Positions 16,757-56,628 of a stretch of 64,000 nucleotides of DNA are shown piece by piece. This DNA is from Spirosoma endbachense (GTDB lineage Bacteria > Bacteroidota > Bacteroidia > Cytophagales > Spirosomataceae). Each line of letters opens with the position of its first letter. Position 1 is the first letter of the stretch. The notes beneath the pieces were generated by a model. The model searched no databases. It was not told where the DNA came from and saw nothing but the letters and a program-made list of their open reading frames with translations. The stretch spans positions 7,878,153-7,942,152 of the forward strand of contig NZ_CP045997.1 in the NCBI RefSeq assembly GCF_010233585.1, in the 5' to 3' direction. Made by a program: the position numbers and the translations under genes.

Positions 16757-18808
16757 TTACTTACCTGATTCCTTAATCGTGAGGGTTTTACGAATGCCCA
16801 GTCGTTCCATACGGTATTCAAGGGTAGACGGTTTTATATTCAGCAATTCAGCCGCTCCACCGGCTCCCCGAATCCGGCCGTTCGTTTTTTGTAGAATAGT
16901 CAGAATATAGTCGCGCTCCGATTCCTGGTGCTGTTGTTTCACACCGGGCAAATCCTTCGCCATCGCCCTGTCGACGTTGAGCGTAGCGCTAACGTCTAGC
17001 TGCGTTGCTGCTGATAGGGATGTTTCTCTGGCAGCAAACAAATGTGTCCCTAAGGAACGGCCTAACGCAACCGGGTTTTTTCCGTCATTTAGGATAACGG
17101 CCTGCTCCATTAAATTTTCAAGTTCCCGGATATTCCCCGGCCAATTATAGGAAACCAGTTCCTCAACCGTACTGGCTTTGAAGCCAGGAAAGGGTTTACC
17201 TAGTCGTCGGGCAAATTTTTTGGCAAAATGAGTCGCCAGCAACGGAATGTCGCCCCGTCGCTCCTGTAAGGAAGGCAATAAAATGGGAAACACCGACAGG
17301 CGAAAGAATAAATCCATCCGGAATCGACCGTCCGCCACTTCCTTCTCCAATTCCCGGTTCGTTGCGGCAATCACCCGGACATCGGTCTTGATGGGGGTCT
17401 TGCCCCCCAACCGTTCAATTTCCTTTTCCTGCAAAACCCGTAATAGTTTCGCCTGCAGGTCCAGCGGCAATTCCCCGATTTCATCCAGGAAAATAGTCCC
17501 TCCCTGCGCTACTTCGAATTTACCGATACGCCGATCAACCGCTCCTGTGAAAGCTCCTTTTTCGTGGCCGAATAATTCAGATTCAATTAAGTTGGCGGGC
17601 AATGTTGCGCAGTTAACTTTAACCATAATCTTTCCCTTGCGCGCCGATAAGTTATGAAGAGCCCGGGCAAACAGCTCTTTACCCGTACCACTTTCGCCCA
17701 TCAGTAAAACCGTGGTATCGCCAGGGGCCACCTGCGATACCAAGTTAAAGACCTGCATCAGGGGTTGCGAAGTACCCAGGATTTCTTCAAAATTGGCCGA
17801 GGACTTCACTTCTTCCTGGAGGTAGGTGTTTTCCTGCTGGAGCTTTTCGCTCAGACGAGCCACTTCTTCGTACGCAAAGATGCGGTCTAACGTGAGGACG
17901 ATGGGTTGCTCCAGCCTCTCCAGCAGGTTTAGATGGCGGGTAAGATAAGTGTCGGGTTGCCGGCTGAAAAAACTTAGTACGACTGGTCCCATTCGTGTGC
18001 TGGTAAAGGCTAAGACCAGTGCAGATTCCAGCCGGTACGTGTGGGCCAGGGCTTGCATTGGTCGATACTTCCGACATAAACTCTCAAAGTCGTTGTGGTT
18101 ATACCGGCCAGCCCCCTGTTTCGCTACGTCTCCCTGCGCGGCTAAGGCCTGCTCCAGAGGAATACCGGCCATCTTCCAGAAACTTTCCGGCGATACCGTT
18201 TCGTACTCATCAAACCCGACCCGGTGAAAACAAAACGCCAGACGGAATTTTTCCTGAGCGAACCCCAAAGTCAGATACTCGAACGGGATGTTGGGCAGTA
18301 GCAACTGAGCGACCCGTAACAACCGGTCTGCCCAGGGCGTATTGTCGGACAGCGCATCGGTTAAAGCAACCTGGAGCACTTTTTCCTCCCGCAGTTTCAT
18401 TTCTTTACTATGGGCCTGTCGATAGCGAGCAATTTCAAGCGTTGTCAATATATCTCTCTCCCTAAACGGTTTGACGATATAGCCGCTGGAGTCGGTGTTT
18501 TTTACCTGTTCGAGCACTCGTTGATTATCATTGGCCGAAATAAAGATGAAGGGGATAGTAGTATCTTCCAACTGCCGGGACAGGTCAATACCGGTAGCCT
18601 CCCCCTTGAGGTAAATATCCAGCAGCACCATATCAGGCGTTTGTTGTTTAATCAATTTCGTGGCCTCATCGACAGACCGGGCAATGCCCAAAATCGTGTA
18701 CCCGGCTTTCTGAAGCATTAACTTCAGGTTATTGGCAATGACGTACTCATCTTCTACTATTAAAAGTTGATAAGCAGCGTTTGATGACGGGTTGCTGGGT
18801 AGTTGCAT
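16757..18808 (-). CDS. Sigma-54-dependent response regulator (receiver, GAF-like, AAA+, Fis-type HTH)
   Basis: An NtrC-type enhancer-binding protein of about 683 residues, started at 18808 ([10 protein letters not shown]) because the receiver begins soon after; an upstream ATG at 18886 is possible. The receiver has the phospho-acceptor in [10 protein letters not shown] and conserved Lys in VKPF. A GAF-like linker is followed by the AAA+ domain with Walker A GESGTGKE, sigma-54 contact loop GAFTGA and Walker B FLDEIGE. The C-terminal HTH contains [20 protein letters not shown]. It is paralogous to the activator at 53241-55307. No kinase is adjacent. Inverted repeats at 19127 and 20014 just beyond it are candidate binding sites. 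Confidence 0.95.
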
Positions 18809-19000
18809 ATACGTACGCTTTTTTATTGTACAGGCCAGAGCAGTGAGTTCAATACATCCTATTAGACGTAGCCTGTCAGTCAACACCGACAGTAGAGATT
18901 AATAACGGCATGGTTGATTCTCTACCCTTGCAAGATAAAGACCATTGGCGTACCAGTTCCTTTAAAACTTCAAACTATATAGCTAAAGTAGAGTATTTGA

Positions 19001-19126: not shown

Positions 19127-19144
19127 TCCCCAATAAGTTGGGGA
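19127..19144. promoter_or_regulatory. Candidate operator, 18-bp inverted repeat, site 1
   Basis: TCCCCAATAAGTTGGGGA has 7-bp arms around TAAG and lies 187 bp upstream of the NTF2-like gene, in the interval shared with the divergent sigma-54 activator. It matches 16 of 18 bases with 20014-20031 upstream of the next hydrolase gene. Recurrence of the same inverted repeat near two neighbouring transcription units suggests a shared regulator, possibly the adjacent activator. A stem-loop role is possible but there is no T-run. Confidence 0.55.
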
Positions 19145-19330
19145 AACACAACTTGTTGGCAAAAACCCAATGCCTGGTTGGGGCCAGAACGAGTGAAAAC
19201 CTAAAAATAGGAATAAGCAAATCCGCCAAGTGGCTGAGCCTATGGCATATGAATGCTGACCGTTTTTTTTATTGAAGCTGGCATATCTGTTGATTGAGCC
19301 CCATAAATAGTCATTCATTTCTTTTTCATA

Positions 19331-30846: not shown

Positions 30847-31234
30847 GCCGGCATTATAAACGAATTGATCGGCTGTGACTATTTTGTAGGAACTCCACAG
30901 ATTTCTATCAAATTTTGGAGTTATCCAATTTCGTTTAGCCGCCCGTTGGGCTTATTTATTGGCTTTAGGTGGCATCAGAGCCGATTAAAGCGCATATCAT
31001 CTGGTCCGACCATTCTGGCACAGCTTTTGGCATACTATTTCAGTAATTCACTATTTACCGTACTGAAAAAGTCAAGAAAAGTAATAAGCTAACCAGAAGG
31101 ATCGGAGTCATCACCTGAACACACTAACACCGAAACGGTAGCTTTATCACACTTACTGTTTGAGGTAACTATAGTATTGGATGGACACGCGACTGTTTGT
31201 AAGCTTCCCATTATGACTCTCCGCACTCTCGAAG
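30847..31234. other. 388-bp gap between kinase and response regulator
   Basis: A 75-codon frame (30865-31092) exists but has an improbable composition and no recognisable similarity, so it is not called. No hairpin or operator stands out. The gap makes co-transcription of kinase and regulator uncertain. Confidence 0.35.
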
Positions 31235-37687: not shown

Positions 37688-37702
37688 TCCAGAATTACTG
37701 GA
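37688..37702. promoter_or_regulatory. Enhancer-type operator (UAS) for the AhpD-like operon
   Basis: TCCAGAATTACTGGA is an inverted repeat with arms TCCAG and CTGGA. The same arms with spacers ATATA and ATTTA occur at 39676 and 55568. It begins exactly 123 bp upstream of the -24 GG of a sigma-54-like promoter, the same distance as at 39676. The rest of the 729-bp gap from 37198 holds one dispersed repeat copy and no gene. Confidence 0.75.
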
Positions 37703-37807
37703 TCACTAACTCGTTTCTAAAATAGGAAAGCAACCAACAGTCTTCTCTAAAAGAGCCTTAACAGTCTTTTCTCACGCATTTTAACTGTTACTCTTACAGT
37801 CATCACT

Positions 37808-37825
37808 TTCGGCACAGGGTTTGGC
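37808..37825 (+). promoter_or_regulatory. Sigma-54-like promoter
   Basis: TTCGGCACAGGGTTTGGC has GG-N10-GG, close to the sigma-54 consensus TGGCAC-N5-TTGC with GG in place of GC at -12. Seventeen bases (37808-37824) are identical to 39796-39812. It is ~100 bp upstream of the gene at 37927. Two sigma-54 activators are encoded in this window. Confidence 0.65.
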
Positions 37826-37926
37826 ACATCTCTTTCGAACAAGAGAAATTACCAAAGTGAGTTTAACGCTACCTCGTTGTTTAGCTTTTGAAACTAATCA
37901 ACTTAATCACTATCTGTAAAAGATAT

Positions 37927-38172
37927 ATGGAAACTATAACGCTGATTCCTGCGAATAGCCTTTTAACAGCTACACCAGAAGAAGGTCGACAACTAGCTAT
38001 CAAAATGGCCCGATTAATTATCAAAGCGACTCAGCCAGATGCCCAGATTCGGGAAAAACTGCGGGATGTCTATGCCAACGATGCCATGATGCTCATTGCG
38101 ATTGGACAAACCGTGGCAACTGAGTTTGCCACTATTGCAGCCGCTAACGACTACTGGCATGTCACCCGCTAA
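37927..38172 (+). CDS. Small hypothetical protein of the AhpD-like operon
   Basis: About 81 residues from ATG 37927; an in-frame ATG at 37888 adds 13. Mostly helical with no Cys (EEGRQLAIKMARLIIKATQP, NDAMMLIAIGQTVATEFATI). It lies 59 bp before the AhpD-like gene, behind the sigma-54-like promoter. No family recognised. Confidence 0.6.
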   Translation: METITLIPANSLLTATPEEGRQLAIKMARLIIKATQPDAQIREKLRDVYANDAMMLIAIGQTVATEFATIAAANDYWHVTR

Positions 38173-38231
38173 TGAAAGGCCAATTAATGGCGGATTCTTA
38201 AACGAAACTAATTTTTTAACTGGCAAAAACA

Positions 38232-38669
38232 ATGGACAAACGCCTAAAGATTGGCCACATCGACCCGGATTTCTATAAAATGCTTTCGGACATAGATACG
38301 CACATTGCGGGTTCCGGCCCAACGGTATCTCAACTGGATCTGCTCAAAATTCGGGCATCTCAACTGAATGGGTGCGCATATTGCATTCAATCGCATACCA
38401 AAGACGCTAGGGCGCATGGCGAAGCAGAAAAGCGCATTTACGCTCTGGACGCCTGGGAAGAAAGCCCTTACTTTTCGGATGAAGAACGGGCGCTGTTGGC
38501 GCTAACCGAAGAAGTGACGCTGATCCGCGAAAAACGGGTTTCTGACGACACCTATCAGCAGGCTATCGCTCTTTTTGGTGAACAACTAACGGCGCAACTC
38601 ATCATGGCAATCATTAGTATAAACGCCTGGAATCGGATTGGTATAACTACCCGTATGACGCCAATTTAA
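38232..38669 (+). CDS. Carboxymuconolactone decarboxylase / AhpD-like alkylhydroperoxidase family protein
   Basis: A 145-residue helical protein with the redox motif CAYCIQSHTKDAR, the CxxC-x3-His arrangement used by AhpD peroxidases, near residues 52-60. The surrounding LDLLKIRASQLNG and ISINAWNRIGI are typical of the family. It would reduce organic hydroperoxides or act as a chlorine/peroxide stress protein. It is the second gene behind the sigma-54-like promoter at 37808 and is followed by a long hairpin. Confidence 0.92.
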   Translation: MDKRLKIGHIDPDFYKMLSDIDTHIAGSGPTVSQLDLLKIRASQLNGCAYCIQSHTKDARAHGEAEKRIYALDAWEESPYFSDEERALLALTEEVTLIREKRVSDDTYQQAIALFGEQLTAQLIMAIISINAWNRIGITTRMTPI

Positions 38670-38742
38670 CGTGAGTAAATTACGTGAGTCGCGGCTGCGT
38701 AGCAATATGATGTTTATTTATCTTACGTGGTTAAATATGTTT

Positions 38743-38796
38743 AAAACAGTTGCAGGCATCGCTCGGAGTATTCCGGAAGATGCCTGCAACTGTTTT
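38743..38796. terminator. Long hairpin between convergent genes
   Basis: Perfect 18-bp arms AAAACAGTTGCAGGCATC (38743-38760) and GATGCCTGCAACTGTTTT (38779-38796) flank an 18-nt interior that itself contains CGGA-TCCG. Each side ends in TTTT on its own strand, so it suits bidirectional termination between the AhpD-like and cupin genes. Confidence 0.85.
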
Positions 38797-38836
38797 CGGT
38801 CAACATAACAGCTATATTCAGAAGGTATGGGCCCGA

Positions 38837-39388
38837 CTAATCAATGTATTTCTCATAGGTAGGTTTGAAGCCAGCCAGATAAGCCACCGGAGAAAGGAGT
38901 ATGAAAATAAACTTTTGGCACACAAAGGGCCAACGGGTTAGTCTGAAGACATTCGAAAAACAATTCGCTGTCAGGGCAGTCTGGAGAATTCGGGGAATAG
39001 GCTGACGGCTGATCGTTTCGACACCTGCTAATGCGGCTATTGTTTCCAGCAGGTGCTCCGTATTTAAGGCAGGGCGTACCCGGCAGTTGATGGTTGTTGG
39101 TTGAGTGGATCGGTTCCACAGTGCATGTGGCCGATTAGCTTCAATAAACAGTTTCTCTCCCGCTTTCAGCTGCCTGTACTGGCCGTTGATCAGAACGGTA
39201 AGCTCCCCCGATAATACATCCAGATCCAGCGTTTGGTGAGGGAGAGAATAGCGTAGTTCGGGCTGACGCTGCGGCTGAAAAGTAGCGATCATACCCAGGA
39301 ATTGCCCCGCAGTGTCTTTAGCCGTGTGCAGAAACGTAATTACCTGACCTGTTTTGGGATTTCGAATTACTTTGTTCCGATAGGCCAT
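38837..39388 (-). CDS. Cupin domain protein
   Basis: A 183-residue protein. Residues ~25-100 form a cupin barrel (LDVLSGELTVLINGQYRQLKAG is the first part, shown by VLSGELTVLINGQ and FIEANRPHALWN), with the second-motif His but an incomplete first metal motif. The C-terminal third contains a hydrophobic stretch (KFIFILLSPVAYLAGF) that may be a membrane anchor. Function unknown. Confidence 0.8.
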   Translation of the reverse strand: MAYRNKVIRNPKTGQVITFLHTAKDTAGQFLGMIATFQPQRQPELRYSLPHQTLDLDVLSGELTVLINGQYRQLKAGEKLFIEANRPHALWNRSTQPTTINCRVRPALNTEHLLETIAALAGVETISRQPIPRILQTALTANCFSNVFRLTRWPFVCQKFIFILLSPVAYLAGFKPTYEKYID

Positions 39389-39675
39389 ATTCGTCTGGTT
39401 TTAACGTCTGACACCCATCGTATAACAAGCCACATGCCAGAACCTGTTTCAGTCACGCCCTTGAAACACTATGTCATCCGTTGGCTTTCTTCAGAAACTC
39501 AGACTATTGCTCAGCCTGGGCTACTTCCCGATATCAAATGAGCTGAGTTCGTGTTTTTGGGGAGAAATTCAATGCTTTGGCTCTGCACTTCGGCAGGGGT
39601 TGTTTCCGTAAAACAGCTTCTGTCTGCAAGCTTCCTCCAGATGCGTCGTACTTCATTACGGATTTGTCTGACTAC

Positions 39676-39690
39676 TCCAGATATACTGGA
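39676..39690. promoter_or_regulatory. Enhancer-type operator (UAS) for the catalase-like operon
   Basis: TCCAGATATACTGGA, same inverted repeat as at 37688 and 55568. It begins exactly 123 bp upstream of the -24 GG of the sigma-54-like promoter at 39796. The sequence between operator and promoter is otherwise unlike that at 37.7 kb, so the spacing is not explained by recent duplication. The 457-bp region 39389-39845 holds no credible gene. Confidence 0.75.
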
Positions 39691-39795
39691 TTGAACAAGC
39701 TGACCTGTTTTTGCCATTACATTCGTTTGCCGGTTTAAAAGGCCGTTATTAATCTTTAAAAGGGAGATATTGGTTGAAGTTAGTTTTTCGTGGCC

Positions 39796-39813
39796 TTCGG
39801 CACAGGGTTTGGT
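39796..39813 (+). promoter_or_regulatory. Sigma-54-like promoter of the catalase-like operon
   Basis: TTCGGCACAGGGTTTGGT, identical over 17 bases with the element at 37808. The -12 GG lies 34 bp before the ATG at 39846, a normal leader length. It would drive the five-gene group 39846-44997. Confidence 0.65.
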
Positions 39814-39845: not shown

Positions 39846-40919
39846 ATGCAACCTCTTTCGTGTTCACCAAACAACTCAACCGGCGCAAGCTATAGCCTTA
39901 AAAGCAGCCGGTTCAATGGGGCTCTGTTGATGACTGTGCTCGTATCTAGCATACTGCCCGCAGCTCATGCTCAGGACGGAAATGCCGGTATCAAATCCAC
40001 TACAAAAGCCACGCCCATTCAGGTCGTTGATATGTTTCATACGGCTTTTGGCAAAAATGGCGGGCGGGCCGTGCATGCCAAGGGCTTCATTCTGGAAGGT
40101 AGTTTTACACCCGCACTCGAAGCCCGTACGCTGACAAAAGCAGCCCATTTAAAAAGTGGTACACTACCGGTTCTCGTTCGATTCTCTAACTTCACGGGAA
40201 TTCCCGATATCCCCGATACGGTAGGAGCTTCCCACCCACGGGGCATGGCGATCAAGTTTCAGATGCCGGAGAATCAATCGACCGACATTATCTTCCATAG
40301 TTTCAACGGCTTCCCGGTATCCACAACGGACGAGTTTAAAGTCATGCTGGAAGCTATTGGTGCCAATAGGGAAGGAAATCCGGCCCCACTGAACCAGTTT
40401 CTGGCGACGCATCCTGTCGCGAAAACTTTTTTGACAACGCAAAAGCCATTCACGCCAAGCTGGGGTACGCTGGCCTATTTTGGGGTCAATTCCTTTAAGT
40501 TCACGAACCAGGCGGGCCAATCGCAATTTGTTCGTTATCAGATTATTCCCGAAGCTGGTGAACAGTTCCTGACGGCTCAGCAGGTTGCCACCTTAGGCCC
40601 CAATTACTTACAGGAAGAAATTAAGGAGCGGGTGGCTAAGAAACCAGTCGTGTTTAAGCTGTATGCCCAGATTGCCCAGAAAGGCGATAAGATCGAAGAC
40701 CCTTCCATTGCCTGGCCCGATAGCCGAAAGCGTGTTCTGCTCGGAACGGTGACAATAACTAAAGTAGCCGCGAACACGGTGGCGGAGGATAAAACACTGT
40801 TTTTCAACCCCAACAACGTACCCGAAGGGATCAACATCGCCGACCCAATGCTGCTGGACCGGGCACGCGCGTACCCTATTTCGGTAGGTGGGCGGCAGGG
40901 GGCGTTTGAGGTGCATTGA
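39846..40919 (+). CDS. Catalase-related peroxidase, exported (SrpA-like)
   Basis: A 357-residue heme protein of the catalase superfamily, shorter than true catalases. The catalytic His is in AVHAKG (His77) and the distal Asn in HSFNGFPV (Asn154). The C-terminal FFNPNNVPEGINIADPMLLDRARAY carries the proximal Arg/Tyr region (split here: FNPNNVPEGI and LLDRARAYPISVGGR). A signal peptide-like segment (LLMTVLVSSILPAAHA) indicates export. It sits behind a sigma-54-like promoter and next to an SDR, two hydrolases and an aldehyde dehydrogenase, pointing to peroxide or electrophile stress. Confidence 0.93.
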   Translation: MQPLSCSPNNSTGASYSLKSSRFNGALLMTVLVSSILPAAHAQDGNAGIKSTTKATPIQVVDMFHTAFGKNGGRAVHAKGFILEGSFTPALEARTLTKAAHLKSGTLPVLVRFSNFTGIPDIPDTVGASHPRGMAIKFQMPENQSTDIIFHSFNGFPVSTTDEFKVMLEAIGANREGNPAPLNQFLATHPVAKTFLTTQKPFTPSWGTLAYFGVNSFKFTNQAGQSQFVRYQIIPEAGEQFLTAQQVATLGPNYLQEEIKERVAKKPVVFKLYAQIAQKGDKIEDPSIAWPDSRKRVLLGTVTITKVAANTVAEDKTLFFNPNNVPEGINIADPMLLDRARAYPISVGGRQGAFEVH

Positions 40920-40987
40920 CTGTCGCTCCGTCAACTGTTGCCAGACGACGTATAAAAGTCCGAATTCACAGTAAACTCTTTAGGGAT

Positions 40988-41782
40988 ATGCGAACCGTAT
41001 TGATTACCGGGGCAACCTCAGGTATTGGGTTGAGTATTGCCAACAAACTTCATAAAAACGGCTTTGCCGTGTTTGGTACCAGTCGTTTTCCGGAGCAGCA
41101 TCAACACAAGGTTGCCTTTGAGCTGTTGCCCCTGGACATCACATCCGAAGAGTCGATAAAAAACTGCATAGCTGCCTTATCGGTCAGGACGGTGGTGATC
41201 GACGTGTTGATAAATAACGCAGGAAATGACCTGAATGGAAGTGCCGAAGAAACCAGCTCGACATTAGCCCGCCAGCAGTTTGAGATTAACTTTTGGGGAA
41301 CGGTCAACATGACAAAAGCCGTCCTGCCGTTAATGAGAGACCAAAAAAGTGGCCAGATTATCACTATTGGCTCCCTGGCCGGACTGGTTGGGATTCCGTT
41401 TCAAAGCTTTTACGTAGCCTCGAAACATGCGCTGGAAGGTTTTTTTAAGTCGTTGCGGTTCGAGGTGAAACCGTTCAATATTCGTATCTCAGTGGTTGAG
41501 CCCGCTTTTTTCAAGACCAACCTGGTACAGGGGTTTTCGTACGCTGAACCAACCATTCCCGCCTATACGAAAGACCGGGAAAACGCTTTATCGGTCTATT
41601 CGAATTCGATAAAGAACGGCCCCTCGCCGGAGCCGGTAGCGGATGTTGTGCTAAAAATACTTCGGACTACCAGGCCACAGTTTAGCTATCGGGTTGGTAG
41701 CGATGCTAAAACACTCCCTGTCATACAATTTCTATCGTATCCCTTATATGAGTGGGGGGCGGCAAGAAGATTTAACATTTAA
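40988..41782 (+). CDS. SDR family oxidoreductase
   Basis: About 264 residues from ATG 40988 (MRTVLITGATSGIG); a start at 40916 would overlap the catalase gene and add 24 residues. Motifs: TGATSGIG, NNAGNDL, the Ser in IITIGSLAG and YxxxK in FYVASKHALEG. It is the second gene of the catalase-like operon. Substrate unknown; relatives reduce aldehydes and ketones. Confidence 0.92.
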   Translation: MRTVLITGATSGIGLSIANKLHKNGFAVFGTSRFPEQHQHKVAFELLPLDITSEESIKNCIAALSVRTVVIDVLINNAGNDLNGSAEETSSTLARQQFEINFWGTVNMTKAVLPLMRDQKSGQIITIGSLAGLVGIPFQSFYVASKHALEGFFKSLRFEVKPFNIRISVVEPAFFKTNLVQGFSYAEPTIPAYTKDRENALSVYSNSIKNGPSPEPVADVVLKILRTTRPQFSYRVGSDAKTLPVIQFLSYPLYEWGAARRFNI

Positions 41783-47360: not shown

Positions 47361-49739
47361 CTAATCGCTGCCGACCATTTCTTTAACTATTTTTTCTTCC
47401 GTAAACGTCAGGCTTATCTGAACACCGTCGCGCTGATCGATTTGCAAACGACCACCCAATTGCTTACTTAACCCCCGAATGAGACTCATGCCTAACGTCA
47501 TGCTGCGGTTTGGGTTTATATCGGCGGGGAGCCCAATACCATTATCGTTAATTGTAAGCTGGTACGTTTGACTATCCAACTTTCTCAGGGCGACGCTAAT
47601 AACGCCCGTCTGATTGAATGGAAAGGCGTGTTTCAGCGAATTGGTCACCACCTCGTTGATAATTAACCCGAGGGGTACAGCCAGCGTCACGTCCAGATCA
47701 ACGGGAGTCAGAGAAATCTGCTTACGAACGGTACCTTCCCGATCGAACGATTGAATCAGGTAATCGACAATCTCCGTCACATAACCTACCATGGGAATAG
47801 CGGTGAGCTGATCGGATTGATATAACTTCTGATGAATCAGCGCCATCGCATGAACCCGGTTCTGGCTTTCCCGGATAGCCGACTGAGCGGCCTGGTCGGT
47901 CAGATACACACCCTGAGAATGGAGCAGGCTGGTGATGATCTGAAGATTATTTTTCACTCGATGATGAATCTCTTTCAGCATCCACTCTTTCTCAGTTAAT
48001 AATTGTTTCTGACTGGCGAGGAGCGTTTCCAGCGCCTGGTTCTTCTGGTTAATTTCGTGTTGTTTCGTTTCGAGGAGCTGGTTGCTCTTCTGCTTGATCC
48101 GGTAGCGGTTATAACTCAACCCCAGCAAGCAAAGCAACAGAATCGAACAGATGAGGATCGTATTTCTGATCGTTCGGGCCTGGTCTAATTCACTGGCCTG
48201 CAAGTGGCTCTGTTTCTTGAGCAGGCTAATGTTCTGTTGATTTTCTTTCGTCTCGTATTGTATTTCCAACCGAGCAATCTGCTTTGCCTTGGTTTCGCTG
48301 AAAAGCGAATCATTCAACGCTTTATGAAGTCGAAAATGTTGAATGGCGGACAGATAGTTCCCCTGAGCTGAATCGACTTTAAAGAGCATGTAGTGGATGT
48401 CTTTCACCGTCGACAAGGCGTGTTTCTGGGGAGTAAAAGCCAGCGCTTTTTCCAGGAAGAGCCCCGCCTTTTTAATGTCCTGCTGCTCCAGGTAAAACTG
48501 GCCGACTTCTGCCTGAACTTTTTGCGACATCTCCGTATTTTGATGTGATTTTTCGTACCAGTCAATGGCTTCCAGATAGTAGCGCTCGGCAAGTGCAGAC
48601 TGATGCAGGGATTGGTAACAGTTGGCCAGACTTTGCGCAATACACCCTTTTTGAACTTTATTGATCGGTGGTATTTCCCCAACTAAATTTTTCAGCAGGC
48701 TAATGGCTTCCACCGCTTTATGGTGGGCTGTCATGTCGCGGGCAATGATGCTGGCTACATTATACATGGGCAGGTCGGCCTGTTTTTCCTGCCGCCATTT
48801 CTGAAGTGCTTTTTTGTACCAGCTAATGGCCTGTTCCTGCTTTCCCAACTCCCAGTAGATCTGGGCCACATCACCATAAAACGTGGCTGCGAGTAAGGTG
48901 TCCCGAGTCCGGTTCATGCTCTCCAGACACTGAAACGAATAGCCCAGGGCTTTGCCATAATTACCTTTTAATCGGTTGATGTACGATAGCCAGCTGTAGG
49001 TATAATGGAGCTTGGGATAGCCAATAGCTTTGTACCGATTTAACACATTGACAAACTCATTATTGCCCAAATCCAGCTTTCCCTGATTGGTATGAAACGC
49101 GGCAATTTCACGAAGGATATAAATTTCAGACTCGTAATTCTTTAGTTCCCTATAAATAGAAGCCGCCTGCATGTAGCAAGCCACGACAACCGGGAAATTC
49201 TTGGTAATAAATACGGAACAGGCACCAAATCGGGTCAGCGCTTCAGCCTGCCCACTTTTGTCATTTGTTCGGATACAGTCGTTGATAAGTTCATTGAAAA
49301 GCAGTTTGCCCACCGTTGTATCCCTTAATTCCATGTGGGCAACCACCAGCATCGTCTCGGCCTCATGACGTTTGGCAGGTAAATTGAGTCTGGTACTTAA
49401 TGCCTTTGCCTGATGCAGAAACCCTTGTGCGCTGTCTAAATCCGGTTTGACTTCACCGTACTTGAGTACATGAAACTTTCCCAACTCAATCAGGGCGTTG
49501 ATGCGGTTGGTGTCGTTTGGGCTACCCGCCAACTGCTTCAGGTATTGATTCACCATTTGTCGATTAATGTTCTGGCCCGGACTCGACAGACTGGCCAACA
49601 GCAGGCCAGCCGCCAACACGTAGTTCCGTAGGAGACGCCTGAAAAGAAGCGAAATCGTAGTCCCATCAGACAAGACAGCCTCAGGTGACCCCATTGATAG
49701 TTGACGGTAATTGTATGTAGCGACTCGCTTCATGATCAA
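47361..49739 (-). CDS. TPR sensor histidine kinase, HisKA_2 type (paralogue 3)
   Basis: A 792-residue kinase with the same architecture as its neighbours: TPR repeats, one membrane helix (ILICSILLLCLLGLSYN), EIHHRVKNNLQIITSLL and NEVVTNSLKHAF / DNGIGLP. The start is uncertain; an internal membrane-like segment (LLRNYVLAAGLLLASLS) may be the real signal. Middle gene of the tandem, 82 bp after paralogue 4. Confidence 0.94.
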   Translation of the reverse strand: MIMKRVATYNYRQLSMGSPEAVLSDGTTISLLFRRLLRNYVLAAGLLLASLSSPGQNINRQMVNQYLKQLAGSPNDTNRINALIELGKFHVLKYGEVKPDLDSAQGFLHQAKALSTRLNLPAKRHEAETMLVVAHMELRDTTVGKLLFNELINDCIRTNDKSGQAEALTRFGACSVFITKNFPVVVACYMQAASIYRELKNYESEIYILREIAAFHTNQGKLDLGNNEFVNVLNRYKAIGYPKLHYTYSWLSYINRLKGNYGKALGYSFQCLESMNRTRDTLLAATFYGDVAQIYWELGKQEQAISWYKKALQKWRQEKQADLPMYNVASIIARDMTAHHKAVEAISLLKNLVGEIPPINKVQKGCIAQSLANCYQSLHQSALAERYYLEAIDWYEKSHQNTEMSQKVQAEVGQFYLEQQDIKKAGLFLEKALAFTPQKHALSTVKDIHYMLFKVDSAQGNYLSAIQHFRLHKALNDSLFSETKAKQIARLEIQYETKENQQNISLLKKQSHLQASELDQARTIRNTILICSILLLCLLGLSYNRYRIKQKSNQLLETKQHEINQKNQALETLLASQKQLLTEKEWMLKEIHHRVKNNLQIITSLLHSQGVYLTDQAAQSAIRESQNRVHAMALIHQKLYQSDQLTAIPMVGYVTEIVDYLIQSFDREGTVRKQISLTPVDLDVTLAVPLGLIINEVVTNSLKHAFPFNQTGVISVALRKLDSQTYQLTINDNGIGLPADINPNRSMTLGMSLIRGLSKQLGGRLQIDQRDGVQISLTFTEEKIVKEMVGSD

Positions 49740-49821: not shown

Positions 49822-52200
49822 TTAGAGCGCTGTTACCTGCTCTCTACAAACGGTTTCCTCCGAGAACACAAGCCGGACTTCAACTCCTTTACCATCATTC
49901 TGACGGATTTCCAGACGTCCCCCAATCTGCTTACTTAACCCACGCATCAGACTCATACCCAGCGTTCGGCTTTTCTGCGGGTTAAAGTCAGCCGGAAGGC
50001 CCGTTCCATCGTCACTTATTACCAGCAGGTAGTGATTTTCTTGCGCCGTTAATTCAACGCAGATGATCCCCCGATTGCCACCCATAAAGGCGTATTTGAG
50101 GGAGTTGGTCACTGCTTCGTTCAAAATTAAGCCAAGAGGGACCGCCAGCGTAACGTCCAGTTCGAGGGGTATTACGTTGATTCGTTTGCGAATGGTATCC
50201 TCCCGATCGAAGGACTTTATCAGATAGTCGACGATCTCCGCCACGTAACCAGCCATCGGAATAGCCGCCAGCCGATCCGACTGGTACAACTTCTGGTGAA
50301 TCAGGGCCATGGCATGTACCCGGTTCTGACTTTCCCGTATGGCCGACTGTGCGGCTTCGTCCTTAAGGAAAACGCCCTGCGAATGGAGCAGACTGGTAAT
50401 GATTTGTAGATTATTCTTAACCCGGTGATGGATTTCTTTGAGCATCCATTCCTTCTCGGTCAGTAGTTGTTGCTGTTCGGATAGCAGGGTCTCCAATGTG
50501 TGATTTTTTCGATTTATCTCACGCTGTTTAATTTCCAGAAGCTGATTGCTGCGTTGTTTTAGCCGATACCGATTATAACTTAATGCCAGTAGGCAAAGCA
50601 AGAGAGCTGACCCGCCCAGAATACCATTTCGAACGATTCGGGCCTGCTTTAGCTCCCCATCCTGCACTATTTTTTGTTTCTTCAGGAGTACTATATTCTG
50701 TTTGTTCTTTTGCGTCTCATACTGAACTTCCAACTGATTGAATTGATTGTTTTTCGTTTCGTTGAAGATGGAGTCATTCAGTGATTTATGCTGTCGAAAA
50801 TGAGAAATGGCCGATTTGTAATCTCCGGTTGCCGAGTCGATTTTAAACAGTATAAAGTGAATGTCCTTGAGCAGGGAAAGTGAATTTTTCTTTGTCGAAT
50901 CAACTAGCAAAGGCCTTACATAAAAATTGGCTCTTTTAAACTGGTTACGTTCTAGGTAAAACCGGCCAACTTCCATCTGGGCCTTTCGCGACATTTCAAA
51001 ATCATGATTGGCCTCTATGTACCACCGCATTGCCTCCAGGTAGTATTTTTCGGCTAACTTATCATCCTTCAACGCATCATAGCTGTAGGCGAAACTCTGT
51101 GCTACCGACCCTTTCTGGATGAAATTTATCGTTGGAATCTGAGTGACCAGTTCGTTGATCAGTTTGAGCGCTTCCTCTGGCTTCTGCTGTTTAATTAAAT
51201 CCCGGACAATTATGTTGGCCGCATTGTACATCCCATAATTTGGTAACCCTTCCTGCCGCCATTTAGCCAGTGTTTTCCGGTACCATTCGTTGCTCTGCCG
51301 ATACCTGCCCAACTCAAAATACATTTGGGCTAGATTGCCGTAAAAACTGGCTGCTGATATGGTGTCGCCCGTCCGGTTCATGCTATCAATGCATTGCAGC
51401 GAGTAAAAAAGGCTCTTGTTAAAATCACCTTTTAGGCGGTTAATGGTCGATAACCAATTGTAGGTGTAATGAAGTCTTGGATAACCGATAGCTTTGTAGC
51501 GTTTCAGGATCGTCTGGAACTCCCGCTCAGCCAAATCCAACTGTCCCAGATTTGTATGGAGACCCGCGATTTCGTGCAGGATCAGCAGTTCCTGTTTCTG
51601 GTTATGGAGCGACCGGTAGATGGCAATGGCCCGGTTATAATTGTCAAAAATCTCGGGAAACTTCTTCGTCGTGAAAGAAATACAGTAGCCCAGACGAAAA
51701 CGGGCGTTGGCTTCGGATGCCCGGTCGCCCGTTCGTCGGCAGTCAGCGATCAACCGGTCAAACAGCGCATACGCCTGCTGGCTGTTGGCTGCCTCTAGAT
51801 AATTAGCCACTCTTACCGCGTCTATTTCATGCTGCCACGTCAACTGGTGCAATGAATCGCTTAGGTGCCTGGCCCGGTTGAGGTAGGACAGACTGCTGTC
51901 CAGATCTGCAGGCACATTGCCCGGTTTAAAAAGCTGATACTTGCCCAGCTCGAACAGGATTCTTATTCGGCCTGTGTCTGCCTTACTTTGGGTTAACTGA
52001 ACCAGCAGTTGATTCGCCATCTTCCGGCTTATGTTTTGTGCGTGGGCGGGTAGAGAACCCCAAAGCAAACCAAAAAACAGGCAAATATTGGCCCTTACAA
52101 ACGGAGATGCATAACTAAACAGGAGTGATCGTGCTGAGCCAATCGACCTTACGACTGATTGACTAAACGGGAAAAAGGTTACTGACGCTATCATGATCAA
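49822..52200 (-). CDS. TPR sensor histidine kinase, HisKA_2 type (paralogue 4)
   Basis: A 792-residue kinase, first of the tandem in transcription order. The signal-like segment is ANICLFFGLLWGSLPAHAQ. TPR repeats are followed by a membrane helix (GSALLLCLLALSYNRY), EIHHRVKNNLQIITSLL, NEAVTNSLKYAF and SDDGTGLP, where the usual DNG is DDG. It is the most similar to paralogue 3, so the tandem probably grew by duplication. The promoter lies in the 368-bp region shared with the divergent DsbA-like gene. Confidence 0.94.
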   Translation of the reverse strand: MIMIASVTFFPFSQSVVRSIGSARSLLFSYASPFVRANICLFFGLLWGSLPAHAQNISRKMANQLLVQLTQSKADTGRIRILFELGKYQLFKPGNVPADLDSSLSYLNRARHLSDSLHQLTWQHEIDAVRVANYLEAANSQQAYALFDRLIADCRRTGDRASEANARFRLGYCISFTTKKFPEIFDNYNRAIAIYRSLHNQKQELLILHEIAGLHTNLGQLDLAEREFQTILKRYKAIGYPRLHYTYNWLSTINRLKGDFNKSLFYSLQCIDSMNRTGDTISAASFYGNLAQMYFELGRYRQSNEWYRKTLAKWRQEGLPNYGMYNAANIIVRDLIKQQKPEEALKLINELVTQIPTINFIQKGSVAQSFAYSYDALKDDKLAEKYYLEAMRWYIEANHDFEMSRKAQMEVGRFYLERNQFKRANFYVRPLLVDSTKKNSLSLLKDIHFILFKIDSATGDYKSAISHFRQHKSLNDSIFNETKNNQFNQLEVQYETQKNKQNIVLLKKQKIVQDGELKQARIVRNGILGGSALLLCLLALSYNRYRLKQRSNQLLEIKQREINRKNHTLETLLSEQQQLLTEKEWMLKEIHHRVKNNLQIITSLLHSQGVFLKDEAAQSAIRESQNRVHAMALIHQKLYQSDRLAAIPMAGYVAEIVDYLIKSFDREDTIRKRINVIPLELDVTLAVPLGLILNEAVTNSLKYAFMGGNRGIICVELTAQENHYLLVISDDGTGLPADFNPQKSRTLGMSLMRGLSKQIGGRLEIRQNDGKGVEVRLVFSEETVCREQVTAL

Positions 52201-52352: not shown

Positions 52353-52520
52353 TCTAAAAAAAATGGAGTTGTAGGGAAAAAGCGTCTATTCTTTTGGAGT
52401 TTCTCTTAACTAATTTACGTCTACAGGTCAGGCTTTTATGAGGTATATCGCGCGCTGGGCCTTGCGTTGGCCATTTTCTGCCACGTAGCATCAATGGCGG
52501 TTTCGTGGCACAGGAGTTGA
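52353..52520 (+). promoter_or_regulatory. Sigma-54-like promoter with degenerate operator sites upstream of the DsbA-like gene
   Basis: TGGCACAGGAGTTGACA (52506-52522) resembles the sigma-54 consensus TGGCAC-N5-TTGC, with GA instead of GC. Upstream, TCTAAAAAAAATGGA (52353-52367) matches 10 of 15 bases of the TCCAGAnnTACTGGA operator, and a lone right half TTTTGGA ends a 15-bp window starting exactly 123 bp before the -24 GG. These are weaker than the sites at 37.7 and 39.7 kb. The region 52201-52568 has no gene. Confidence 0.4.
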
Positions 52521-52568
52521 CATGCTTTACGCAGGAATCGTCCTGGATTTCACCCAACCGCAATCTCT

Positions 52569-53240: not shown

Positions 53241-55307
53241 TCAGTCGGGATCAGTCTGAGAATGATTAGGATCAACGGAAAGCGTTTTGCGAATGCCCAG
53301 TTTATCCATCCGGTACTCCAGCGTTGTTGGTTTGAGGTTGAGGAGTTCAGCCGCCCCATTGCTGCCCCGGATGCGGCCATTGGTGCGCTTAAGCACCGCC
53401 AGAATATAGTCGCGTTCCGTTTGCTGCTGAATCTGTTTTATGTCATTCAGGTCTTTTGGCGGGGAATTGGTCGATTGACTGGAATCACGACTGTCATTCT
53501 CCGGGGATAAGGTAGGTCTACTGAATAGAAATAGATTACTTACCAAAGGCCGACCCAATTCGAGGGGTGTCTGCCCATCGTTAAGAATTACGGCCTGCTC
53601 CATGACGTTCTCCAGTTCCCGAATGTTGCCCGGCCAGGGGTAGTTAACCAGTTCATCGAGTACTTGGGGATTGATCCCCCGAAAGGATTTTCCCATTTTT
53701 CGGGCTGATTTTCGGGCGAAGAAGTTAGCCAGTAACGGAATATCCCCGGCTCGTTCGCGCAAGGCGGGTAAGGTAATGGGGAAGGTGGCGAGTCGGAAGT
53801 AAAGGTCCATCCGGAAGCGCCCTTCGGCTACTTCTTTTTCCAGATTGCGGTTTGTGGCGGCGATGATCCGCACATCGGTTTTGATTGGCGTTTTGCCACC
53901 GATTCGTTCTATTTCCTTTTCCTGCAAAACCCGTAAAAGCTTGGCCTGTAACTCCAGGGGCAACTCCCCAATCTCATCCAGGAAAATGGTGCCCTCCTGG
54001 GCCAGTTCAAACTTGCCAATTCGTTTCTCGAAAGCACCCGTGAAAGCCCCTTTCTCATGGCCAAACAGTTCCGATTCAATGAGTGTGGCGGGGAGTGCGG
54101 CACAGTTTATCTTGACCAGAATCTTGCTCTTTCGGGGCGACAGGTTATGGATAGCTCTGGCAATCAGCTCTTTGCCGGTTCCGCTCTCGCCCAGGATCAA
54201 CACTGTTGTATCGGTATAAGCAACCTGGTTGACCTGCTCAAAAACCCGTAGTAACGACTGACTACGGCCAATGATTTCTTCAAAATTGGCCGACGTTTTA
54301 ACTTCCTCCTGAAGATAGTTCTTTTCGCGCTGGAGCTGTTCGCTAAGCCGGGCCACCTCCTCAAAAGCCAGCACACGCTCCAGCATCAGAACGATTGGCT
54401 GCTCTAACCGTTCCAGTAGTGTCAGGTGCGACGCACGATATACATCAGCTTTTCGGCTCAGGAATAGAATTACAAACGAGTTGTTGCCGCTCATCCGCAA
54501 CGGCATGACCAGCCCTGACTGGAGCCGGAATGATTTGGCGAGCACCTGCCCATAGCGGTGGGCTTGACAAAAACCGTCGAAGGCTTCTTCGTTATAGCGG
54601 ACAGGTTCCCGAAAGCGCATCCCGCTTTGCATCGCCAGCAGTTGGTCTGCGGCATAGCCCGTCATCGGTTGCAAATCGTTCAGAGTGAGGGTTTTATATT
54701 CGTCAAATCCGACCTGATAGAAATTATAGCTCTGATTGACACCGTTCTTCTGATACTGAATCGTCAGAAAGTCGAATGGGACATTAGGCTGCAGTAATCT
54801 GGCCGCGTTCAGTAGTTTATGTTCCCAACTTTCCGATGCTGACAAAGCATCGGTGAGGCCTATTTGCAACGCTTTTTCCTCCCGTAGTCTCATTTCAACG
54901 CTGTGGGCGTGACGATACCGGCTGATTTCCAGCGTTGTCAATATATCTTTTTCCCGAAACGGCTTCACAATGTAGCCACTGGGCTGCGTAGCTTTTACCT
55001 GTTCCAGGACACTTTTGTTGTCATTAGCCGAGATATAGATAAACGGAATACCCTTGTCTTCGAGCTGTTTGGCCAAGTCGATGCCGGTTTCTTTCCCTTT
55101 CAGATAAATGTCGAGCAAAACCATATCGGGCCTTTGCTGCGCTATGAGTGTCAGGGCTTCGGCCACAGAATCGGCTACCCCCAGAACAGGATACCCGGCA
55201 ACGTGCAGAATCAACTCCAGATCATTGGCGATGATGTATTCATCTTCAACGATCAGAATTTGACAGGCTGAGGTAGAGGAAAGGGGAGGAGTGAGGTGTT
55301 GCTGCAT
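53241..55307 (-). CDS. Sigma-54-dependent response regulator (receiver, GAF-like, AAA+, Fis-type HTH), paralogue
   Basis: About 688 residues from ATG 55307 (MQQHLTPPLSS), chosen because its paralogue begins at the same distance from the receiver; an ATG at 55364 is also possible. Receiver: IVEDEYIIAND, phospho-acceptor in [10 protein letters not shown], Lys in VKPF. AAA+: [41 protein letters not shown], nearly identical to the activator at 16757. It lies beside three sensor kinases and the TCCAG-type operators at 55568 and 55708, which suits autoregulation and control of the operons at 37.9, 39.8 and 55.9 kb. Confidence 0.95.
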   Translation of the reverse strand: MQQHLTPPLSSTSACQILIVEDEYIIANDLELILHVAGYPVLGVADSVAEALTLIAQQRPDMVLLDIYLKGKETGIDLAKQLEDKGIPFIYISANDNKSVLEQVKATQPSGYIVKPFREKDILTTLEISRYRHAHSVEMRLREEKALQIGLTDALSASESWEHKLLNAARLLQPNVPFDFLTIQYQKNGVNQSYNFYQVGFDEYKTLTLNDLQPMTGYAADQLLAMQSGMRFREPVRYNEEAFDGFCQAHRYGQVLAKSFRLQSGLVMPLRMSGNNSFVILFLSRKADVYRASHLTLLERLEQPIVLMLERVLAFEEVARLSEQLQREKNYLQEEVKTSANFEEIIGRSQSLLRVFEQVNQVAYTDTTVLILGESGTGKELIARAIHNLSPRKSKILVKINCAALPATLIESELFGHEKGAFTGAFEKRIGKFELAQEGTIFLDEIGELPLELQAKLLRVLQEKEIERIGGKTPIKTDVRIIAATNRNLEKEVAEGRFRMDLYFRLATFPITLPALRERAGDIPLLANFFARKSARKMGKSFRGINPQVLDELVNYPWPGNIRELENVMEQAVILNDGQTPLELGRPLVSNLFLFSRPTLSPENDSRDSSQSTNSPPKDLNDIKQIQQQTERDYILAVLKRTNGRIRGSNGAAELLNLKPTTLEYRMDKLGIRKTLSVDPNHSQTDPD

Positions 55308-55567
55308 AGCCTGAGAACATACGAGAAGAGTTGAATTCGAACTGCCTTGGTGGTGGCCTGACAAGAATTGCGCCCGTATCAGAGCAGAAAGTAAAGGTAA
55401 CTACATAATCTCGGGCTAGTTGCTTCCTGTAAGCAAACAACCCAAAGGCCAGTCACTGTAGCAGGAAATACGGGTTTATAAACGGTAAATTTAATTTGCC
55501 GGTCTTCCTGACTTCGCGTAAAATTTACCCTTCATCTTAAGGTAACTACAGACTAACTGTAGAAAAA

Positions 55568-55582
55568 TCCAGATTTACTGGA
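55568..55582. promoter_or_regulatory. Enhancer-type operator between activator and SDR genes
   Basis: TCCAGATTTACTGGA, the third full copy of the inverted repeat. It is 261 bp upstream of the activator start on the minus strand and 348 bp upstream of the SDR gene on the plus strand, so it could serve either. A half-site TCCAG follows at 55588. Confidence 0.65.
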
Positions 55583-55707
55583 GTTCTCCAGTTGGCTGTA
55601 ATTCGATCGGTAGCCATCGACCGAAAAGCGAATCGAAAAAGGCATTGATGGGGCAACGCTTATTGTTGACCGCCCTTATTAAGTCTTCCGTTTGAGCTAT
55701 AGTAAAC

Positions 55708-55722
55708 CCCAGAAATAATGGA
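55708..55722. promoter_or_regulatory. Degenerate copy of the TCCAG-type operator
   Basis: CCCAGAAATAATGGA matches TCCAGAnnTACTGGA with two mismatches at the outer arms. It is ~142 bp upstream of the -24 GG of the candidate promoter at 55849, about two helical turns further than the 123 bp seen elsewhere. Confidence 0.45.
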
Positions 55723-55929: not shown

Positions 55930-56628
55930 ATGGCTACCCTATTCATAACTGGTACTTCTGGTGGCTTAGGCCACGTGGTCACCCAAGCCCTGCTGAACGA
56001 AGGGCATCTCGTTATTGCTACGCGCCAGTATAGCGACAATCCGCAAAACCTTATTCATGGCTTTTCAGACTTGCTGTTTACCTATGAAACAGACCTGGCT
56101 GATGAAGCCCAGGTTCAAAAGTTAATCCAACGGGTTATTCACAAACACGGTCCTATCGACGCAGCGGTTCTGTTAGCGGGTGGGTATGCAGGTGGTTCAC
56201 TGACGGAGACGGATGGGGCCTTAATCGATAGCATGATGACGGTAAATTTCAAAACGGCTTATCATGTCATTCAGCCACTTTTTACCTACATGAGTAGCCG
56301 ATCCAACGGAGGACGGTTCGTACTCATTGGTGCCAGACAACCGTTAAATGCCCAATTCGGTCGGCAAGCAGTGGCGTATACGTTAGCCAAATCACTGTTG
56401 TTCGACTTGTCGGACCTGATCAATGCGTCGGGTAAAGAGCACGATATTGTCTCTACCGTCATTGCCCCCAGTGTTATTGATACCCCTGCAAACCGTCGGG
56501 CTATGCCGGATGCCGACTTTACGGCCTGGGTCGATCCGCAAACTCTGGCCGACACGATTGCCTTTGTGCTTTTTGGCGCGGGCCGTGCCTTACGAGAACC
56601 CATACTTAAGGTATACAATCGGGCCTAG
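55930..56628 (+). CDS. SDR family oxidoreductase
   Basis: A 232-residue short-chain dehydrogenase with TGTSGGLG cofactor motif, LLAGGYAGG instead of NNAG, the Ser region FVLIGARQP (Ser replaced by Gly) and YTLAKSLL as YxxxK. The altered Ser suggests reduced or different catalysis, similar to DHPR-like SDRs. First gene of a group with NDH-2 and HdeD, 41 bp before the next. Confidence 0.88.
   Translation: MATLFITGTSGGLGHVVTQALLNEGHLVIATRQYSDNPQNLIHGFSDLLFTYETDLADEAQVQKLIQRVIHKHGPIDAAVLLAGGYAGGSLTETDGALIDSMMTVNFKTAYHVIQPLFTYMSSRSNGGRFVLIGARQPLNAQFGRQAVAYTLAKSLLFDLSDLINASGKEHDIVSTVIAPSVIDTPANRRAMPDADFTAWVDPQTLADTIAFVLFGAGRALREPILKVYNRA

What the first reader, a model, noticed from the sequence alone, without database searches (positions are those of the whole stretch)
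37688..39813. Two operons share an inverted-repeat enhancer and sigma-54-like promoter at an identical 123-bp spacing
TCCAGAATTACTGGA at 37688 and TCCAGATATACTGGA at 39676 are each exactly 123 bp upstream of the -24 GG of a 17-base identical promoter-like element (TTCGGCACAGGGTTTGG at 37808 and 39796). The sequence between them is unrelated, so recent duplication does not explain the match. The two operons encode an AhpD-like protein and a catalase-related peroxidase with SDR, hydrolases and aldehyde dehydrogenase. Two NtrC-type activators with intact GAFTGA loops are in the same window.
Basis: partly seen in the sequence, partly recalled or inferred. Interest (0 to 1): 0.8.

Follow-up and report, generated by a model that had tools for sequence, protein, structure and literature searches.

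The report
Shared enhancer controlling heme-peroxidase operons
In a Spirosoma-type bacterium, operons for two heme peroxidases each carry the same palindromic enhancer upstream of a sigma-54-type promoter, and related species keep the pair, chiefly in genomes that have the nearby activator gene, so this looks like an undescribed regulon that works by an ordinary mechanism.

Summary
TCCAG-N5-CTGGA (37688, 39676) lies exactly 123 bp before the -24 GG of an identical 17-mer. GGCACAGNNTTTGG occurs 4 times in the 10.3-Mb genome, 3 in this window. A third dyad (55568) sits between activator gene EBP2 (53241-55364) and an SDR gene. In 19 stretches around EBP2 relatives and peroxidase operons, 31 dyads precede sigma-54-like boxes, against a mean of 0.19 for 59 permuted half-sites. 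Genus-wide, 10 of 11 genomes with EBP2-clade genes carry the composite, against 2 of 25 others. Operon 1 begins with an unreported HTHP heme protein (37927-38172); operon 2 with a catalase-related peroxidase. Best reading: phospho-EBP2 binds the dyads and, by looping, activates sigma-54 promoters of a peroxide/aldehyde detoxification regulon. Binding by EBP2, signal and sigma-54 dependence are inferred; close paralogues may share the sites. New regulon, known mechanism.

The parts
37688..37702 (.). enhancer dyad TCCAGAATTACTGGA upstream of the HTHP-AhpD operon
   Evidence: conserved in relatives
37808..37824 (+). sigma-54-type promoter element TTCGGCACAGGGTTTGG, -24 GG 123 bp from the dyad start
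37927..38172 (+). HTHP, hexameric tyrosine-coordinated heme protein (81 aa), first gene of operon 1
   Evidence: Pfam PF11534 E 3e-34; PDB 2oyy 83.9 bits; orthologues
38232..38669 (+). AhpD-like carboxymuconolactone-decarboxylase-family protein with CxxC
   Evidence: PF02627, TIGR00778; CxxC read
38837..39388 (-). cupin protein between the two operons
   Evidence: PF07883; orthologue between AhpD and catalase-like genes in G210, G213 and Fibrella
39676..39690 (.). enhancer dyad TCCAGATATACTGGA upstream of the catalase-related operon
   Evidence: same 15-mer at the same spacing in G196, G210, G213
39796..39812 (+). sigma-54-type promoter element TTCGGCACAGGGTTTGG, -24 GG 123 bp from the dyad start
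39846..40919 (+). catalase-related heme peroxidase (357 aa)
   Evidence: PF00199; best PDB match 3e4w
40916..41782 (+). short-chain dehydrogenase
   Evidence: PF00106
41798..42604 (+). alpha/beta hydrolase
   Evidence: PF12697
42697..43485 (+). alpha/beta hydrolase
   Evidence: PF12697
43540..44997 (+). aldehyde dehydrogenase
   Evidence: PF00171
45033..47303 (-). TPR-HisKA_2 sensor histidine kinase, candidate partner of EBP2
   Evidence: relatives near EBP2 genes
47361..49739 (-). probable TPR-type sensor histidine kinase (paralogue of its neighbours)
   Evidence: ORF; by reading only, not scanned
49822..52200 (-). TPR-HisKA_2 sensor histidine kinase
53241..55364 (-). EBP2: receiver - middle region (GAF-like only by order of predicted secondary structure) - sigma-54 AAA+ (GAFTGA) - Fis-type HTH; proposed binder of the dyad
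55547..55561 (.). degenerate dyad TACAGACTAACTGTA, 21 bp before the third dyad
55568..55582 (.). third dyad TCCAGATTTACTGGA, continuing into CTGGAGTTCTCCAG (55578-55591), between EBP2 and the SDR gene
   Evidence: similar compound operators in relatives
55708..55722 (.). degenerate dyad CCCAGAAATAATGGA, 142 bp before the GG of the weak box
   Evidence: TCCAGAAATAATGGA at 144 bp in Fibrella L102
55848..55864 (+). weak sigma-54-like box CTGGCACAAAAACCGAT before the SDR gene, 282 bp from the third dyad
55930..56628 (+). short-chain dehydrogenase divergent from EBP2
   Evidence: PF00106
16757..18886 (-). EBP1, paralogue of EBP2 with the same domain order; no match above 63% identity in 35 other genus genomes
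19127..19144 (.). dyad TCCCCAATAAGTTGGGGA of a different type beside EBP1 (related repeats at 19166, 19984, 20014)

Best explanation
TCCAG-N5-CTGGA is the upstream activating sequence of a clade of sigma-54 activators represented by EBP2. When its receiver domain is phosphorylated, probably by a neighbouring TPR-HisKA_2 kinase, EBP2 binds the dyad (sometimes with an adjoining third half-site), assembles into an AAA+ ring and, by looping the ~110 bp between, contacts RNA polymerase-sigma-54 at the GGCAC-N5-TTGG element to start transcription. The regulon encodes HTHP, an AhpD-like protein, a catalase-related peroxidase, dehydrogenases and hydrolases, best read as peroxide and aldehyde detoxification. 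Shown here: the motifs, their conservation, the spacings, and co-occurrence with EBP2. Inferred: that EBP2 is the binder, sigma-54 dependence, kinase pairing, looping and the physiological role.
For: Strict composite: 6 hits in 5 of 222 family genomes, all at 123 bp, reversed control 0; within the genus these are the same 5 genomes in which the catalase-like protein was found at E<=1e-60. 31 dyads (at most 1 mismatch) 85-170 bp upstream of sigma-54-like boxes in 19 stretches (417 kb), mean 0.19 and maximum 2 for 59 permuted half-sites. Relaxed genus-wide composite: 9 hits with 2 reversed-control hits and 9 hits with 0. 10 of 11 genomes with EBP2-clade genes versus 2 of 25 others, Fisher 2.7e-6. 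A dyad with at most 1 mismatch upstream of 12 of 13 EBP2-clade genes. Promoter alignments keep dyad and box while the spacer diverges without indels in four catalase promoters. Spacings phased near 10 bp. One sigma-54 gene in the genome. Receiver D85 and K134 invariant, and GAFTGA invariant except its A440 column, in 17 aligned activators.
Against: No binding, transcript or mutant data. The sigma-54 consensus by itself is not enriched in the window. EBP1 and the paralogue at 4.29 Mb have near-identical recognition helices, so who binds what is uncertain. In G196 the peroxidase operons (7.21 Mb) lie far from both EBP2-clade genes (1.03 and 4.36 Mb). G186 has an EBP2-clade gene without a dyad before it, and the Fibrella catalase-like gene has no dyad with up to 1 mismatch. 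The third window dyad has only a weak box, 282 bp away. Orthologous promoters are not independent, so enrichment and phasing p values are optimistic; collapsing to 9 whole-genome hits leaves a phasing p of 0.023.
Confidence: 0.8

Rival explanations
1. The dyads are sigma-54 enhancers, but the binder is another member of the activator family (EBP1, the paralogue at 4.29 Mb, or several with cross-talk), not EBP2 specifically.
For: Recognition helices are almost identical across EBP1, EBP2 and the 4.29-Mb paralogue; the genome has 15 strong sigma-54 activator domains among 20 matches; paralogue loci carry closely related dyads TCCAA-N4-TTGGA and, in G185, CTGGAGATCTCCAG.
Against: The N5 dyad tracks the EBP2 clade across genomes and lies upstream of 12 of 13 EBP2-clade genes, whereas none of 8 more distant activators showed it (exact dyads only; for four of the 8, in L090 and L098-L100, one mismatch was also allowed). 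EBP1 and the 4.29-Mb paralogue sit beside different dyads.
Confidence: 0.15
2. The dyad is an operator for an unrelated regulator acting on sigma-70-type promoters, and the GGCAC..TTTGG matches are incidental.
For: The loose sigma-54 consensus is not enriched in the window and no transcription start is known.
Against: Dyad and box are conserved together across species while the spacer diverges, at 93-163 bp with about 10-bp phasing, far upstream for a classical repressor.
Confidence: 0.04
3. Chance or recent duplication of a promoter segment.
For: The 17-mer is identical in both promoters; duplication could copy it.
Against: Spacers are unrelated (35% identity); the same pair recurs in other species at orthologous genes with 0 control hits.
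Confidence: 0.01

Closest known systems
NtrC-family sigma-54 enhancer control (UAS about 100-150 bp upstream; passages of PMC7057263)
   Same: Dyad UAS, -24/-12 element, response-regulator AAA+ activator with GAFTGA, distance range
   Different: Different operator sequence, Bacteroidota host, extra middle region between receiver and AAA+, TPR-HisKA_2 kinases as neighbours, peroxidase targets
LuxO-qrr enhancers of Vibrio (passages of PMC4740811)
   Same: Natural sigma-54 loop lengths (61 qrr enhancers there) clustering in ~11-bp steps
   Different: Different activator and operator; here several different target genes as well as orthologues are compared
Comparative reconstructions of EBP regulons in Desulfovibrio (PMC4641369, passages) and Clostridiales (PMC6615313, passages)
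   Same: EBP motifs assigned by conservation upstream of sigma-54 promoters near EBP genes
   Different: Other phyla; TCCA and TGGA do not occur as word starts in the main text of PMC4641369 (figures not held)
HTHP of Silicibacter pomeroyi (PDB 2oyy; PMC4813847, passages)
   Same: Same family, 67 aligned residues
   Different: Here it heads an operon under a predicted sigma-54 enhancer
Catalase-related chain 3e4w in the PDB
   Same: Closest solved relative of the 39846 product (152 bits, residues 55-352)
   Different: Deposited as a putative uncharacterized protein; activity of the Spirosoma protein unknown

Membership tests
Sigma-54-dependent enhancer/promoter | GG-N10-G(C/G/A) -24/-12 element | tested here: met
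   GGCACAGGGTTTGG at both promoters, -12 is GG not the commoner GC (consensus recalled); conserved in relatives
Sigma-54-dependent enhancer/promoter | UAS dyad roughly 100-150 bp upstream, conserved | tested here: met
   123 bp
Sigma-54-dependent enhancer/promoter | Sigma-54 gene in the genome | tested here: met
   one Sigma54_DBD match, E 1.3e-54
Sigma-54-dependent enhancer/promoter | Transcription abolished without rpoN | not testable with these tools
   needs a mutant and 5'-end mapping
NtrC-family response-regulator activator (EBP2) | Receiver with phospho-acceptor Asp | tested here: met
   PF00072; D85 invariant in 17 sequences
NtrC-family response-regulator activator (EBP2) | Sigma-54 AAA+ domain with GAFTGA | tested here: met
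   PF00158 E 2.1e-73; GAFTGA at 439
NtrC-family response-regulator activator (EBP2) | Fis-type C-terminal HTH | tested here: met
   PF02954
NtrC-family response-regulator activator (EBP2) | Binds the TCCAG-N5-CTGGA dyad | not testable with these tools
   co-occurrence only
HTHP | PF11534 over its cut-off | tested here: met
   117.6 bits against 25
HTHP | Heme binding and peroxidase activity | not tested
   needs purified protein

The most novel reading that the evidence does not exclude
Spirosoma has amplified one receiver-AAA+-Fis activator into several paralogues, each beside its own variant of a TGGA/TTGGR half-site dyad (TCCAG-N5-CTGGA, TCCAA-N4-TTGGA, CCCCAA-N4-TTGGGG), so that parallel sigma-54 detoxification regulons have diverged by changing half-site sequence and dyad spacing while a nearly constant recognition helix and a helical-phase rule for enhancer position were kept; and HTHP, a heme protein for which the listings showed no regulatory study, belongs to one of them.
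Probability: 0.35. Interest if true: 0.6.

Novelty: new member of a known kind. Interest (0 to 1): 0.48.

Why it matters
It gives a testable activator-operator pair for sigma-54 control in the Cytophagales; no paper holding both 'Spirosoma' and 'sigma-54' was found in the held library. It places two heme-peroxidase families, HTHP and catalase-related, under one predicted signal, which would point to a function for HTHP. It also adds a natural set of enhancers whose spacing varies largely in helical steps, an independent comparison for the Vibrio qrr data.

Tried and rejected
A generic sigma-54 pattern scan of the window gave no enrichment and was not used as evidence. Fifteen of the 17 genome-wide dyads were checked for boxes 60-420 bp downstream on both strands: boxes scoring 18 or more appeared only at 37688 and 39676 (the last two dyads were fetched later, and checked only for lying in an ORF). 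A genome pattern for the EBP1-type repeat was mis-specified by me (one N too many) and found nothing. The loose CCC-N7-TTGGGG and CCC-N9-TTGGGG patterns are not significant in the window (11 and 25 of 100 shuffles reach the counts), while AAGTTGGGGAW is (3 found, 0.08 expected) but was chosen after seeing the copies. EBP1 has no close orthologue in the genus genomes searched, so its repeats could not be footprinted. The search for related loci with EBP2 returned 4 loci, 2 useful. NCBIfam gave the catalase-like protein only a weak catalase HPII match far below the cut-off. The AlphaFold model of EBP2 (mean pLDDT 71.6, pTM 0.41) suggests a GAF-like middle region by secondary-structure order only; no fold search was run.

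Corrections to my own steps. The label 'small37928' comes from a frame that was off by one base; the right frame (37927) was used from then on and the orthologues recounted (five genomes besides the window's). The HTHP copy in G211 shows one in-frame stop and is described only. One search used 19 stretches: L082-L097, L101, the part of L102 outside L101, and the window; L098-L100 (more distant activators) and L103 (duplicate of L085 sequence) were not given. L082, L084, L086, L089 and L101 had been chosen for the composite or the catalase gene, the rest for EBP2. One search missed the window's own 37688 dyad because its ORF rule dropped the short HTHP gene, so 31 is a low count. In one search two of the three distance lists (19 and 14 values) were typed by hand; the third (26 values) was made by rule. 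The hand lists held 143.5 for the SDR promoter where 143 is right (142 in the window, 144 in Fibrella); one search repeats them with little change. Best period 9.8-9.95 bp for these lists and 10.1-10.15 for whole-genome hits; at 10.5 bp R was 0.54-0.61 and 0.66-0.79.
Full report
Where it is. The window is 64 kb of a single-contig 10.3-Mb genome. The window genome shares a genus with G213, so it is taken to be a Spirosoma species (inference).

The observation. Both dyads, both 17-mers and the 123-bp spacing are as described. The spacers are unrelated. TCCAG-N5-CTGGA occurs 17 times in the genome, no more than its reversed control (18), but 3 copies lie in this window, all between genes, whereas of the other 14, 13 are inside ORFs of at least 277 aa and 1 lies between convergent genes. 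The promoter core GGCACAGNNTTTGG occurs 4 times in the genome (reversed control 0), 3 of them here, at 31017, 37811 and 39799. A loose sigma-54 consensus is not enriched (53 found, 60 expected), so the evidence rests on the specific pair and its conservation.

What the operons encode. Operon 2 begins with a catalase-related protein (PF00199; nearest solved chain 3e4w), then an SDR, two alpha/beta hydrolases and an aldehyde dehydrogenase. A cupin gene lies between them. A role in peroxide and aldehyde detoxification follows from the families, not from any assay.

Conservation test. The composite TCCAG-N5-CTGGA, 85-115 bases, GGCAC-N5-TTG gives 6 hits in 5 of 222 family genomes and none with the reversed pattern; all six have the same 123-bp distance although 31 distances were allowed. 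Two are the window's; three precede catalase-like orthologues of 87-92% identity (G196, G210, G213) and one precedes the HTHP copy of G211. These five are also the only genus members in which the catalase-like protein was found at E<=1e-60 (6 of 222 family genomes, the sixth being Fibrella). In alignments, dyad and box are unchanged in four catalase promoters while the spacer diverges without indels. The HTHP promoters keep the pair at 123-126 bp in six genomes, with one mismatch in the dyad in three of them. Against: the Fibrella catalase-like gene has no dyad with up to one mismatch, and that of G211 uses other spacings, 112 and 142 bp.

Link to EBP2. EBP2 (53241-55364) is a receiver, AAA+, Fis-HTH response regulator with GAFTGA. 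Eleven of 36 genus genomes carry relatives at 72% identity or more, 13 genes in all. Of these 13 genes, 12 have a dyad with at most one mismatch to TCCAG-N5-CTGGA in the region upstream; G186 is the exception. In several the dyad runs on into an inverted third half-site, as in TCCAG-N5-CTGGAGTTCTCCA at 55568 in the window. In 19 stretches (417 kb, 81 candidate boxes) around EBP2 relatives and their peroxidase operons, 31 dyads lie 85-170 bp before sigma-54-like boxes near ORF starts; 59 permutations of the half-site give a mean of 0.19 and a maximum of 2. Five of the stretches were chosen for the composite or the catalase gene rather than EBP2, and many rows are orthologous. Without choosing loci, a relaxed composite over 36 whole genomes gives 9 hits in 7 genomes at short spacing (2 reversed-control hits) and 9 in 8 genomes at long spacing (0 control hits). 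Of the latter, 7 lie directly upstream of an EBP2-clade gene and 2 at the HTHP-catalase promoter of G211, 12 kb from one. Of the former, 7 are in genomes with EBP2-clade genes; those in G185 and G197 look like background (their boxes lie in ORFs). Counting genomes over: 10 of 11 with the clade, 2 of 25 without, Fisher p 2.7e-6.

Spacing. Distances from dyad start to the -24 GG, within 85-170 bp, are 93, 104-105, 112-113, 122-124, 126, 135, 137, 141-144, 153 and 163 bp; a few dyads lie farther, such as 257 and 282-284 bp. The nearer set is phased at about 10 bp: R 0.76 for 26 rule-made distances (none of 20,000 random sets reached it with the period free between 9.8 and 11), 0.71 and 0.69 for two hand-made reduced lists (p 1e-4 and 0.003). 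For the 16 whole-genome hits in EBP2 genomes R is 0.82, and for the 9 left after collapsing orthologues 0.69 with p 0.023. Orthologues are not independent, so phasing is suggestive rather than proven. In G211 one pair of dyads serves two divergent promoters, at 142/112 bp one way and 123/153 bp the other. Loop lengths in ~11-bp steps were already reported for Vibrio qrr enhancers (PMC4740811, passages), and a UAS 100-150 bp upstream is standard (PMC7057263, passages).

Other activators. EBP1 (16757-18886) has no match above 63% in the other 35 genus genomes. Beside it lie CCC..TTGGGG repeats at 19127, 19166, 19984 and 20014, before sigma-54-like boxes at 19278 and 20125; only AAGTTGGGGAW is unlikely by chance, chosen post hoc. 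A further paralogue (4.29 Mb, 69% to EBP2) and its G185 counterpart have TCCAA-N4-TTGGA dyads about 117-121 bp before strong boxes. Recognition helices are nearly the same in all three. So divergence of operators among paralogues is suggested, and cross-talk is not excluded.

Mechanism. Best reading: a TPR-HisKA_2 kinase phosphorylates EBP2, which binds the dyad, forms an AAA+ ring and activates sigma-54 polymerase by DNA looping. The genome has one sigma-54 gene and 15 strong sigma-54 activator domains. Shown: motif, conservation, spacing, co-occurrence. Inferred: binding partner, kinase, sigma-54 dependence, signal, function.

Novelty. No paper in the held library holds both 'Spirosoma' and 'sigma-54'. 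A broader search found 31 papers holding three of four terms; of the 8 listed, one concerns Spirosoma regulation, and its main text has no 'sigma', 'NtrC' or 'Fis family' (PMC10036542, passages). A 2025 survey of sigma-54 regulons mentions Bacteroidota and Cytophagia but not Spirosoma (PMC12316311, passages). Subscription papers are largely absent from the library. The regulon appears undescribed; the mechanism is textbook.

Noticed in passing
52353-52521: Box GTGGCACAGGAGTTGAC before a DsbA-like gene, with a degenerate dyad TCTAAAAAAAATGGA (52353) 154 bp before its GG; a similar arrangement (TCTAAGAAACTGGA) precedes Dsb-like genes in L098 and L099.
   Followed up: partly
30890-31031: CTGGCACAGCTTTTGGC, a strong sigma-54-like box before a single-domain response regulator, with AACTCC and GGAGTT half-sites upstream but no clear TCCAG-N5-CTGGA dyad.
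   Followed up: partly
L089:8125-8724: In G211 HTHP and the catalase-like gene are divergent and two dyads between them could serve both promoters; the HTHP reading frame there has one in-frame stop.
   Followed up: partly
L088:5596, L091:17930, L092:2576, L096:14918, L097:6049: Dyads with sigma-54-like boxes 93-123 bp downstream precede an AraC-like regulator gene in five genomes (four of the five proteins printed; name by reading, not scanned).
   Followed up: partly
58952-59801: Two overlapping ORFs that read like the halves of an IS630-type transposase in different frames (reading only).
   Followed up: no
60485-63697: 1070-aa ORF that reads like a large restriction-modification or DNA methyltransferase protein (reading only).
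   Followed up: no
L082-L085: In G210 and G213 the cluster lies on a contig of 348 kb and 197 kb (C2), separate from the main contig; possibly a second replicon.
   Followed up: no
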